From assembly GCA_019454765.1 (NCBI GenBank), contig JACFNR010000009.1, positions 20,027 to 74,815 on the forward strand: a DNA stretch of 54,789 nt, given 5' to 3'. Positions 9,113 through 22,318 of the stretch are shown here, piece by piece. The DNA is from Trueperaceae bacterium. Its GTDB lineage: Bacteria > Deinococcota > Deinococci > Deinococcales > Trueperaceae. The first letter of the stretch is position 1. Each line of letters begins with the position of its first letter. A program made the translations under genes and the position numbers. The notes under the pieces are model-generated. The model ran no database searches. It was not told the DNA's origin and was given only the letters and a program-made list of their open reading frames with translations.

Positions 9113-11433
<2,321 letters not shown>

Positions 11434-18926: not shown

Positions 18927-18955
18927 TTGACGCTCACCGGCGCCGCTCATATACT
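18927..18955 (+). promoter_or_regulatory. leu operon promoter
   Basis: TTGACG (18927-18932), 17 bases, TATACT (18950-18955): the best sigma-70-type promoter in the window. The leader ATG begins seven bases later, so the transcript should start at or next to it. Confidence 0.85.
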
Positions 18956-18962
18956 TCGCCGC

Positions 18963-19061
18963 ATGACCCGCTTGCGTCGGCAGAGCGTTCGGTGCGTGCG
19001 GCGGCGCCTGGCCCAGATCCAGGCGCGGGCCGTGGTGCTCCTAGCTCGGCGGGCGGCGTGA
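18963..19061 (+). CDS. leuL: leu leader peptide with Val-Val-Leu-Leu control codons
   Basis: A 32-residue ORF in the 290-base gap between pilT and leuC. It is Arg-rich, starting MTRLRRQSVRCVRRRL; codons 24-27 are GTG GTG CTC CTA (Val Val Leu Leu), including CTA, which is scarce in this GC-rich genome. Further Leu codons are at positions 4 and 16. Together with the strong hairpin 46 bases downstream this is the arrangement of a branched-chain amino-acid attenuator. No ribosome site precedes the ATG, which sits about at the predicted transcription start. Confidence 0.8.
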   Translation: MTRLRRQSVRCVRRRLAQIQARAVVLLARRAA

Positions 19062-19106
19062 GCAGGCGCTGACGCGGCCCAGCAGGCCGCAGCGACCGAT
19101 AGCTTC

Positions 19107-19140
19107 ACGACCCCCGGCCTCACCCGCGGCTGGGGGTCGT
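19107..19140 (+). terminator. leu attenuator hairpin
   Basis: ACGACCCCC (19107-19115) pairs perfectly with GGGGGTCGT (19132-19140); the stem can extend inward by four more pairs including one G-U. The pyrimidine run CCTCTTCC follows. A separate 6-bp hairpin (GCGGCC 19074-19079 / GGCCGC 19085-19090) lies between the leader stop and the terminator and may take part in an alternative fold. Position between leader and leuC fits an attenuator. Confidence 0.7.
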
Positions 19141-19178
19141 CCTCTTCCACCACGGCGGGCAGCAGACAGGAAGGTCCC

Positions 19179-20606
19179 ATGAGTCAACCCAGGAGCCTGT
19201 TCGACAAGGTGTGGGAGTCCCACACGGTGGGCCGGTTGCGCAACGGCCAGGACCAGTTCTTCATCGACACCCACCTCATCCACGAGGTCACGAGCCCCCA
19301 GGCGTTCGGGATGCTCAAGGACCTCGGCGTCAGCGTCCTCATGCCGGAGCGGACCTTCGCGACGGTCGACCACATCGTCCCCACCCACACGCGCGTCGAG
19401 CCGTTCGCCGACCCGTTGGCGGCGGCCATGATCGCGGAACTCCGCAAGAACACCGCCGCCAACGACATCACGTTCTTCGACGTGGGCGGCGGCAAGCAGG
19501 GGATCGTCCACATGGTGGGTCCCGAGCAGGGCATCACGCAGCCGGGCACGACCATCGCCTGCGGCGACTCCCACACGAGCACCCACGGCGCGTTCGGCGC
19601 CATCGCCTTCGGCATCGGCACCTCGCAGGTGCGCGACGTGCTCGCGACCCAGACCCTCGCGATGAGCAAACCGAAGCTGAGGCGCGTCGAGGTGAACGGC
19701 GCCCTCCCACCCGGCGTCTACGCCAAGGACGTGATCTTGCACATCATCCGCACGCTGGGCGTCAAGGGGGGCATCGGCTACGCGTACGAGTACGCCGGCA
19801 CGACCTTCGACGCCATGAGCATGGAGGAGCGCATGACGGTGTGCAACATGTCGATCGAGGGCGGCGCGCGCTGCGGCTACGTGAACCCGGACGACACGAC
19901 GTTCGCCTACCTCGAGGGGCGCCCGTACTCGCCGGTGGGCGCCGAGTGGGACGCGGCGGTCGCTCGGTGGCGCGCGCTGGCCTCCGAACCGGGCTGCCGT
20001 TACGACGACGTGGTCGTCTTCGACGCCGCCGACGTGCCACCGACCGTCACCTGGGGCCTCAACCCCGGCCAGGCCATAGCCATCGACGAGCTCGTGCCCA
20101 CCGTCGACGGGTCGCCGGAACACGACCGGGCCGCCGTGGCGGAGGCACTCGCGCACATGAAGCTGACGGGTGGCGCGCCCATCAAGGGCACCAAGGTCGA
20201 CGTCGCCTTCTTCGGCTCGTGCACCAACGCGCGCGTGTCCGACTTCGCCCTCGTCGCCGAGGCGATCGCCGGGCACAAGGTGCACCCGAGCGTCAAGGCC
20301 ATCGCGGTGCCCGGCTCGCACCTGGTGAAGCTCGAGTGCGAGCGGCTCGGCATCGACAAGGTGCTGAAGGAGGCCGGCTTCGAGTGGCGCGAGGCGGGCT
20401 GCAGCATGTGCCTCGCCATGAACCCGGACAAGCTCGAGGGGGACCAGCTTTGCGCCTCCTCCAGCAACCGCAACTTCAAGGGGCGCCAGGGCTCGCCGAG
20501 CGGGCGCACCGTGCTCATGAGTCCCGTCATGGTGGCCGCCGCCGCCGTGACGGGCGTGGTGGCCGACGCCCGCGAGGTGTTCGGCGCCAGGAAGGGGGTG
20601 GCCTGA
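19179..20606 (+). CDS. leuC: 3-isopropylmalate dehydratase large subunit
   Basis: Aconitase-family large subunit that isomerises 2-isopropylmalate to 3-isopropylmalate in leucine synthesis. The 475 residues show [26 protein letters not shown], the Fe-S ligand region FFGSCTNAR and the second and third cysteines in [11 protein letters not shown], plus [14 protein letters not shown]. Residues and length are standard for bacterial LeuC. ATG preceded by AGGAAGG. leuD follows with no gap (TGA then ATG). Confidence 0.97.
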
Positions 20607-21218
20607 ATGGCTCTCGCCAAGATCACCGAGGCGCGCGGCACCGCCGTGACGCTGCCGGCCGACGACATCGACACCGACCGCATCATCCCGGCCCGCTTCC
20701 TCAAGGCCGTCACCTTCGACGGCATGGGTGAGGCGCTGTTCATCGACGAGCGTTTCGCCGAGGACGGCAGCAGCAAGCACCACCCCCTCGACGACCCCCG
20801 CTTCGCGGGCGCGAGCATCATGATCACGGGCGAGAACTTCGGGTGCGGCTCCAGCCGCGAGCACGCCCCGCAGGCCATCCAGCGCGCGGGCTTCGTGGGC
20901 ATCGTGGCGGGCTCGTTCGCGGAGATCTTCTTCGGTAACGCCACCACCCTGGGGCTGGTCTGCGCCGTGGTCGACGAGGCGGGGCGCGAGGAGTTGGCAG
21001 CCGCGGTCTCCGCCGACCCGACCACCGAGGTCGTCATCGACTTGGTCGCGCAGGAGGTGCGCGCCGCCGGCCGCACCTACCCGGCACGGTTCCGGGAGTC
21101 GGCCCGCGAGGCGCTGCTGACCGGCTACTGGGATCCCATCGGCGAGCTGCTGGAGGGCGTCGAGGCCGTCAAGGCCACGGCGCGCGCCCTCGGGCACGGG
21201 GAGAGGGTGGCGCGGTGA
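20607..21218 (+). CDS. leuD: 3-isopropylmalate dehydratase small subunit
   Basis: Swivelling-domain partner of LeuC. The 203 residues contain the DDIDTDRIIPARFLK motif, GENFGCGSSREHAPQAI (substrate-binding loop) and GSFAEIFFGNA. Its ATG directly abuts the leuC stop and its own stop overlaps the GTG of leuB as GTGA, so the three subunits/enzymes are coupled. Confidence 0.97.
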   Translation: MALAKITEARGTAVTLPADDIDTDRIIPARFLKAVTFDGMGEALFIDERFAEDGSSKHHPLDDPRFAGASIMITGENFGCGSSREHAPQAIQRAGFVGIVAGSFAEIFFGNATTLGLVCAVVDEAGREELAAAVSADPTTEVVIDLVAQEVRAAGRTYPARFRESAREALLTGYWDPIGELLEGVEAVKATARALGHGERVAR

Positions 21219-22318
21219 GCTACAAGATCGCGGTCCTGCCGGGCGACTTCATCGGGCCCGAGGTGATAGACGCCACGCTCGTGGCGCTCGAGGCGCTGGG
21301 CGCGAGGCACGGCCTCGAGTTCGAGTTCGAGCGCCTGCCATTCGGCGGCAGCGCCATCGAGAGCCACGGCGAACCACTGCCGCAGGTCACGCGCGCCGCG
21401 GCGGCGGCGGCCGACGCGGTGCTCATGGGCTCGGCCGGCGGCCCGGTCGGCGATCACCCCTGGAACAGGCTCCCGCGCGAGAAGCGCGTCGAGTCGGGCA
21501 TCCTCGCCCTGCGGCGCCACCTCGAGGTGTTCGCCAACCTCCGGCCGGTCCGGGTGTTCGACGGCCTGGAACGCCTCTCGCCCCTCCGTCCGGAGCGGGC
21601 GCGCGGCACGGACCTCCTCATCATCCGCGAGCTGACCGGCGGCATCTACTTCGGCAAGCCCGCCTACGTCGAGGCGGACCGCGGCGTGAGCACAATGGTG
21701 TACGAGCGCCACGAGGTCGAGCGCATCGCGCGGGTGGCGTTCGAGACGGCGCGGAAGCGCCGCGGCCACGTGACTAACGTGGACAAGGCGAACGTGCTCG
21801 ACGTGTCGCAGTTCTGGCGCGACGTCGTGGTTGATCTGCACGCGCGGGAGTTCCCCGAGGTCGGGCTCGATCATCTCTACGTCGACAACGCCGCCATGCA
21901 GATCGTGCGCGACCCGCGGGCCTTCGACGTGCTCGTCATGGGCAACCTGTTCGGCGACATCCTCTCGGACCTTGCCGCCGTCATCCCCGGCTCGCTCGGG
22001 CTGCTCCCCTCCGCCAGCCTGGGCGGCGCCGTCGGGCTCTACGAGCCCGTTCACGGCAGCGCCCCGGACATCGCCGGCAAGGGGATAGCCAACCCGGTGG
22101 GCACGATGCTGTCGGCGGCGATGATGCTGCGCTTCGGGCTGGGCGAGCCCGACGCCGCCGACGCGCTGGAGGCGGCCGTGCAGGCGGCGCTGGCGGACGA
22201 CCCGACCACCGACCTGGGCGGCAGCCGCACCACGGCCGCCTTCACGGCAGCGGTGGTGGCAGGGCTGGCGGCTCCTCGGCGGGCGGCTCAGGCCGGGGGC
22301 GCGGCGGCACCCAGGTAA
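21215..22318 (+). CDS. leuB: 3-isopropylmalate dehydrogenase
   Basis: Oxidative decarboxylase making 2-oxoisocaproate with NAD. The 367 residues contain FANLRPVRVF, the Arg-containing IIRELTGGIYFG, the catalytic-lysine segment NVDKANVLD, the metal site GNLFGDILSDLAA and the NAD-binding EPVHGSAPDIAGKGIANP. The N-terminal loop reads LPGDFIGPEV, where the family has GDGIGPE, so Gly is replaced by Phe (codon TTC). A non-conserved Ala-rich tail ends inside the convergent permease gene; the two genes overlap by 31 bases. Confidence 0.96.
   Translation: MSYKIAVLPGDFIGPEVIDATLVALEALGARHGLEFEFERLPFGGSAIESHGEPLPQVTRAAAAAADAVLMGSAGGPVGDHPWNRLPREKRVESGILALRRHLEVFANLRPVRVFDGLERLSPLRPERARGTDLLIIRELTGGIYFGKPAYVEADRGVSTMVYERHEVERIARVAFETARKRRGHVTNVDKANVLDVSQFWRDVVVDLHAREFPEVGLDHLYVDNAAMQIVRDPRAFDVLVMGNLFGDILSDLAAVIPGSLGLLPSASLGGAVGLYEPVHGSAPDIAGKGIANPVGTMLSAAMMLRFGLGEPDAADALEAAVQAALADDPTTDLGGSRTTAAFTAAVVAGLAAPRRAAQAGGAAAPR

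What the first reader, a model, noticed from the sequence alone, without database searches (positions are those of the whole stretch)
18927..19140. Leaderless leu attenuator: Val-Val-Leu-Leu leader peptide plus a strong terminator hairpin
A near-consensus TTGACG-N17-TATACT promoter stands seven bases before the ATG of a 32-codon ORF with the run GTG GTG CTC CTA, including CTA, which is scarce in this genome. A 9-bp perfect stem (extendable to 13) follows 46 bases after its stop and before leuC. This repeats the trp design independently, so leaderless attenuation may be a general strategy of this lineage. Val codons beside Leu codons suggest sensing of more than one branched-chain amino acid.
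Basis: partly seen in the sequence, partly recalled or inferred. Interest (0 to 1): 0.78.

Follow-up and report, generated by a model that had tools for sequence, protein, structure and literature searches.

The report
Leaderless leucine attenuator with conserved peptide
In front of the leucine-synthesis genes of this bacterium sits a tiny gene that most likely acts as a leucine gauge through one rare codon; the gauge recurs across most of the Deinococcus-Thermus group, and in this family part of the tiny protein itself is conserved, which such gauges do not normally need.

Summary
TTGACG-N17-TATACT-N7-ATG, a 32-codon ORF and a 13-bp terminator-like stem precede leuCDB. The same layout precedes leuC in nearly all readable Trueperaceae genomes and in three other families of the order (Thermaceae among them). 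A CTA codon is the constant: 64 of 158 Leu codons in leaders against 3 of 1244 in leuC. A region-2 arm overlapping the leader stop codon covaries with the terminator's 5' arm (0 of 5000 partner swaps as good). Before the terminator's 3' arm is made, it pairs only if the ribosome waits at CTA. Val codons are not conserved, so multi-amino-acid sensing is unsupported. Synonymous codons vary freely, nothing after CTA is conserved as protein, and no excess RNA structure explains it. The trp leader peptide is conserved likewise (RxRTPRxFKxxHQRW). I conclude: a leaderless ribosome-mediated attenuator (known kind) with a probably cis-acting nascent-peptide element (new variant). All computational; no transcript or stall was measured.

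The parts
18927..18932 (+). -35 element TTGACG
   Evidence: same element with 16-18 nt spacer in 40 relatives' leaders
18950..18955 (+). -10 element TATACT; ends 7 nt before the leader ATG, so the transcript starts at or within 1-2 nt of the ATG (inferred leaderless)
   Evidence: -10 to ATG distance 7 in 25 of 40 leaders, 6-10 in all; matches the -10-next-to-ORF pattern described for Deinococcus-Thermus (PMC12340547)
18963..19061 (+). leader ORF, 32 codons, MTRLRRQSVRCVRRRLAQIQARAVVLLARRAA
   Evidence: frame conserved, other frames not
18999..19043 (+). conserved peptide core RRRLAQIQARAVVLL, 15 codons ending in the control codon (family consensus RRRLRVIQxRQTVxL)
19041..19043 (+). control codon CTA (position 0)
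   Evidence: CTA in 25 of 26 motif leaders at exactly this position; Leu at -11 never CTA, Fisher p 1e-13
19047..19064 (+). region 2: 5' arm of predicted antiterminator, overlaps the leader stop codon TGA 19059-19061
19104..19119 (+). region 3: 3' arm of predicted antiterminator, shared with the 5' arm of the terminator
19107..19140 (+). terminator hairpin (arms 19107-19119 and 19128-19140, 13 pairs, -28.0 kcal/mol)
19141..19150 (+). weak U-tract CCTCTTCCAC
19168..19174 (+). purine-rich ribosome-binding-site-like AGGAAGG before leuC
   Evidence: sequence
19179..20606 (+). leuC (isopropylmalate dehydratase, large subunit)
20607..21218 (+). leuD, starts directly after the leuC stop
   Evidence: ORF layout; identity from operon context and sequence
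21215..22318 (+). leuB, overlaps leuD by 4 nt
   Evidence: ORF layout; identity from operon context and sequence

Best explanation
A ribosome-mediated transcription attenuator of leuCDB whose leader peptide is translated from a leaderless transcript. The ribosome loads on the 5'-terminal AUG. With Leu-tRNA plentiful it reaches the UGA, which lies inside region 2, covers it, and lets the 3:4 terminator form. When the Leu-tRNA that reads CUA runs short, it waits with CUA in the A site, leaving region 2 (starting about 8 nt further on) free to pair with the terminator's 5' arm while that arm is being made, so polymerase reads into leuC. In Trueperaceae a 15-residue core ending at the control codon is kept at the protein level; the most likely reason is that the chain touches the exit tunnel and prolongs or times the pause at a single CUA codon. 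Shown by sequence comparison: layout, CTA, peptide-level selection, covariation of arms. Inferred: start site, translation, stalling, termination, tunnel contact.
For: Layout and CTA codon recur in 32 of 35 readable Trueperaceae leuC upstreams and in f2, f3 and f4. CTA 64/158 Leu codons in leaders vs 3/1244 in leuC CDS, p 1e-62. Region 2 and terminator 5' arm covary: own partners beat 5000 of 5000 swaps, z -7.4, or -5.3 dereplicated. Before the 3' arm exists, this window has 10.4 expected 2:3 pairs with the ribosome at CTA and 0.1 at the stop; most relatives behave alike. Peptide: anchored on CTA with no motif requirement, R-14 28/30, R-13 26/30, R-12 27/30, L-11 28/30, pN/pS 0.49 for -14..-8 against about 1.0 for -7..-1 and 1.09 after CTA; all six Arg codons used at -14; no excess RNA structure (z -0.26). 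Control set: 69 leuC upstreams from other phyla, 0 with a leaderless CTA leader. CUA is the theoretically and experimentally best Leu control codon in enterics (PMC1183508).
Against: In this window the full terminator beats the antiterminator at equilibrium in every ribosome state (P 0.98-0.99; also the MFE), so the switch must be kinetic; only part of the loci switch at equilibrium. U-tract is weak in this genus. Composition-shuffle z-scores for single loci are small; only the comparison across loci is strong. Three Trueperaceae genomes (L013, L028, L047) have lost the start codon, the CTA codon or a clear leader. Four Trueperaceae leaders (L006, L008, L022, L035) lack the peptide core in register, so it is not essential. 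No expression data.
Confidence: 0.82

Rival explanations
1. Plain attenuator; the conserved peptide core is a by-product of RNA constraints (for example a hidden 1:2 hairpin or a pause hairpin in the coding region).
For: This window does hold an 8-bp hairpin inside the core, and in other genomes attenuator hairpins overlap the leader ORF.
Against: The core shows no excess structure over synonymous recodings (mean z -0.26, 26 leaders) and third positions are near random, with CGN and AGR Arg codons exchanged; the other two frames are not conserved.
Confidence: 0.15
2. The released leader peptide acts in trans (as reported for Sinorhizobium peTrpL, PMC7298713), and the cis attenuator is a second function.
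For: Protein-level conservation; short basic peptide; precedent of a trans-acting attenuator peptide.
Against: Conservation ends exactly at the control codon and the core keeps an exact 14-residue distance to it while both ends of the peptide vary in length: better explained by a chain read inside the ribosome. A trans role does not predict this register.
Confidence: 0.15
3. Not an attenuator: ordinary promoter with a chance ORF and a hairpin that serves as a weak terminator or transcript stabiliser.
For: Weak U-tract here; arginine-rich ORFs arise easily in GC-rich DNA.
Against: Conservation of start, frame, CTA, peptide and covarying arms over several families.
Confidence: 0.03
4. Val plus Leu sensing through GTG GTG CTC CTA.
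For: Position -2 is Val, Leu or Ile in 25 of 30 leaders.
Against: No particular Val codon is kept; -3 is mostly Thr; GTG GTG is confined to the window genus; leuCDB makes leucine only. The -2 preference looks like a hydrophobic residue in the chain.
Confidence: 0.04

Closest known systems
leu operon attenuator of E. coli and Salmonella (leuL)
   Same: Leader peptide before leu genes with CUA control codons; terminator and antiterminator (Carter 1986 and Bartkus 1991, cited in PMC1183508)
   Different: Enteric leader has a run of CUA codons, a 5'UTR with ribosome site and a different peptide (details from memory); here one CUA (sometimes two), no 5'UTR, and a conserved peptide core before it
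ilvBNC attenuator of Corynebacterium glutamicum
   Same: Leader start codon one nucleotide from the transcription start, i.e. a leaderless attenuator peptide already shown by experiment (PMC11857589)
   Different: Several Ile/Val/Leu codons, three-hairpin region, other phylum, no conserved 15-residue core described there
Leaderless polycysteine short ORFs of mycobacteria
   Same: Leaderless leader ORF controlling an operon (title cited in PMC13236596)
   Different: Translation attenuation, cysteine codon runs
Arrest peptides such as TnaC
   Same: Residues at fixed distance from the stall site set ribosome stalling in front of an operon (PMC8429421, PMC3902921 abstracts)
   Different: TnaC senses free Trp and stalls at its stop codon; here a starved-codon pause is expected, and no stall is shown

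Membership tests
Ribosome-mediated transcription attenuator (leu type) | Short leader ORF with codons of the regulated amino acid, before its biosynthetic operon | tested here: met
Ribosome-mediated transcription attenuator (leu type) | Control codon conserved and enriched across relatives | tested here: met
Ribosome-mediated transcription attenuator (leu type) | Intrinsic terminator between leader ORF and first gene | tested here: met
   stem in nearly all loci; U-tract weak in this window
Ribosome-mediated transcription attenuator (leu type) | Alternative antiterminator freed by a ribosome at the control codon and blocked by one at the stop | tested here: met
   covariation; pre-3'-arm folding; equilibrium fold of the window itself does not switch
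Ribosome-mediated transcription attenuator (leu type) | Leucine-dependent read-through | not testable with these tools
   needs expression data
Leaderless mRNA | -10 element 6-8 nt before the start codon | tested here: met
Leaderless mRNA | Transcription start mapped at the start codon | not testable with these tools
   no transcript data held
Arrest peptide | Amino acid sequence conserved at fixed distance from the stall codon | tested here: met
Arrest peptide | Ribosome stalling that depends on the nascent chain | not testable with these tools
   needs toeprinting or ribosome profiling
Rfam cis-regulatory families | Match to a described RNA family | tested here: not met
   only tRNAs in the window

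The most novel reading that the evidence does not exclude
Deinococcota amino-acid operons use nascent-peptide-assisted attenuation: a conserved basic stretch 11-14 residues before a single control codon (RRRL in leu leaders, RxRTPR in trp leaders) acts in the ribosome tunnel so that one rare codon is enough to sense starvation.
Probability: 0.42. Interest if true: 0.82.

Novelty: new variant of a known kind. Interest (0 to 1): 0.64.

Why it matters
Attenuator peptides are generally taken to be passive: only the control codons and the RNA matter. A leader whose peptide is conserved upstream of one control codon, with synonymous codons free, would tie classical starvation attenuation to arrest peptides. 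Theory says a single control codon gives poor sensitivity (PMC1183508), so this offers a testable way around it. It also documents an attenuator with no 5'UTR over several families of a phylum where leaderless mRNAs are common.

Tried and rejected
Rfam scan: no cis-regulatory match. NCBIfam and Pfam: no family for the leu, trp or ilv leader peptides. Valine sensing: rejected on conservation. RNA structure as cause of peptide conservation: rejected by recoding test. Single-locus shuffle z-scores for the antiterminator: uninformative in GC-rich DNA, replaced by partner swapping. Equilibrium folding of the whole leader: terminator wins in this window, so it does not by itself show a switch. A first terminator search mistook the antiterminator for the terminator in f3 leaders, corrected. 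My first peptide statistics selected leaders by a motif containing R-12 and L-11; repeated with CTA as the only anchor. Idea that leaders without the core compensate with more CTA codons: true for the four Trueperaceae leaders without it, but f3/f4 leaders with a single CTA and no core exist, so not a rule. Open-access literature searches found no report of this leu leader in Thermus or Deinococcus; older subscription papers on the Thermus leu operon could not be checked.

Full report
What is there. The stated features are present at the stated places. The promoter ends seven bases before the leader ATG, leaving no room for a ribosome site, so initiation on a leaderless transcript is inferred. 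A -10 element 6-7 bp before the ORF is a described expression pattern in Deinococcus-Thermus (PMC12340547). leuC, leuD and leuB follow without gaps.

Identity of the genome. The window is G000:C9:20027-74815. One congener is the same contig as CALMXZ010000003.1 and another family member equals REEJ01000190.1, both labelled Trueperaceae; f4 contains Thermaceae, since L087, from Meiothermus granaticius, has a similar leader.

Conservation. I read the DNA upstream of leuC in all genomes that LeuC searches brought in. A leaderless short ORF with CTA and a following hairpin is present in 32 of 35 readable Trueperaceae genomes by my count, in all f3 and f4 loci read, and in the three f2 loci read. 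In two of those f2 loci leuC itself belongs to a different lineage (about 39% identity). f5 loci lack it. Of 69 leuC upstreams from other phyla, one had a leaderless-type short ORF and none had CTA.

Control codon. CTA makes up 64 of 158 Leu codons in leaders and 3 of 1244 in leuC. In 26 motif leaders the Leu at position 0 is CTA in 25, while the equally conserved Leu at -11 is CTG, CTC, TTG or CTT and never CTA. CUA is also the enteric leu control codon, and replacing it by CUG lowers sensitivity (PMC1183508).

Switch. Region 2 begins about 8-15 nt after CTA, usually runs over the leader stop codon, and is complementary to the terminator's 5' arm. Swapping arms between species shows that own partners fit best (48 loci, z -7.4; 33 dereplicated, z -5.3; 0 of 5000). 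If the RNA is folded before the terminator's 3' arm has been made, the window has 10.4 expected 2:3 pairs with the ribosome at CTA and 0.1 with it at the stop. With the whole terminator available the window's terminator always wins at equilibrium, so here the antiterminator must act kinetically; f3 leaders and some others switch even at equilibrium. Without a ribosome the antiterminator forms in Trueperaceae but not in Thermus.

Peptide. Trueperaceae leaders share a 15-residue core that ends at CTA: RRRLRVIQxRQTVxL. Anchored on the last CTA alone, 30 leaders of 14 genera show R 28, R 26, R 27 and L 28 at -14 to -11, and I/V 25 at -8. pN/pS is 0.49 for -14..-8 (one-per-genus bootstrap 0.33-0.74) and 1.04 for -7..-1. 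Amino acid entropy is 1.71 bits against 2.95 (sd 0.03) when codon order is shuffled within leaders. After CTA the ratio is 1.09. Arg codons of both boxes replace each other. The core is not more structured than synonymous recodings. A profile of it, searched over 111 genomes of the class, gives E below 0.005 in 26 Trueperaceae genomes, at the leuC leaders wherever I checked, and no convincing hit elsewhere. Thermus and f3 leaders have too few codons before CTA (6-10) to hold it.

A second case. The trp leader in the window (9147-9239) is also leaderless, and its peptide is more conserved still: RVRTPR[SA][FY]K..HQRW in Trueperaceae, Meiothermus-type and f3 genomes, with free synonymous variation at Thr and Pro codons. 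Aligned on the first Trp codon, it has Arg at -14 and -12, as the leu leaders do. The trp set was collected with a profile and a pattern, so the invariance is partly by selection. The ilvB leaders, rich in Leu, Ile and Val codons, show no such N-terminal core.

Reading. The attenuator is well supported by comparison. The peptide conservation is well supported as a fact; that it works in the exit tunnel to strengthen a one-codon pause is inference, favoured by the fixed register to the control codon and by the lack of conservation after it. A trans-acting peptide (precedent peTrpL, PMC7298713) is the main rival.

Novelty. Leaderless attenuator peptides are known (Corynebacterium ilvBNC, PMC11857589), and so are CUA leu attenuators. 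New here, as far as the held literature shows, are the phylum-wide one- or two-codon leaderless leu attenuator and the conserved peptide core.

Noticed in passing
window 9147-9239 (+), before trpB 9389-10654: Leaderless leader [30 protein letters not shown]; the core RxRTPRxFKxxHQRW is conserved at the protein level through much of the class (75 of 111 genomes by profile), often ending W-stop, with no clear terminator after it; HQRWW codons can form the palindrome CACCAGCGCTGGTGG.
   Followed up: partly
L054 (G000:C30:24661-24700): Leaderless leader MTVSLHGTTISWGLITSSWGRAG before ilvB, with a terminator and long T run (GGCGGGGTTTCTTTTT).
   Followed up: partly
L051 (G000:C3:63937-63974): Leaderless ORF before a DAHP synthase and prephenate dehydrogenase-like pair, with TAC GGC TAT GCC TAC ... 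TTC codons; possible Tyr/Phe leader. It also has an internal SD-like site and second ATG.
   Followed up: no
leuC genes of L001-L030: leuC avoids CTA almost completely (3 of 1244 Leu codons), below the 1.6% of the window's ORFs; would fit sparing the starvation-sensitive codon in leucine-making enzymes.
   Followed up: partly
L013 (G007), L028 (G008), L047 (G014): Trueperaceae leuC upstreams where the leader has decayed: ACG in place of ATG and CTG in place of CTA in L013, no CTA leader in the other two.
   Followed up: no
L057-L086: LeuC proteins of Verrucomicrobiota (Opitutae) are 70-75% identical to the window's LeuC, as close as Thermaceae; possible old gene transfer of leuC without the leader.
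   Followed up: no
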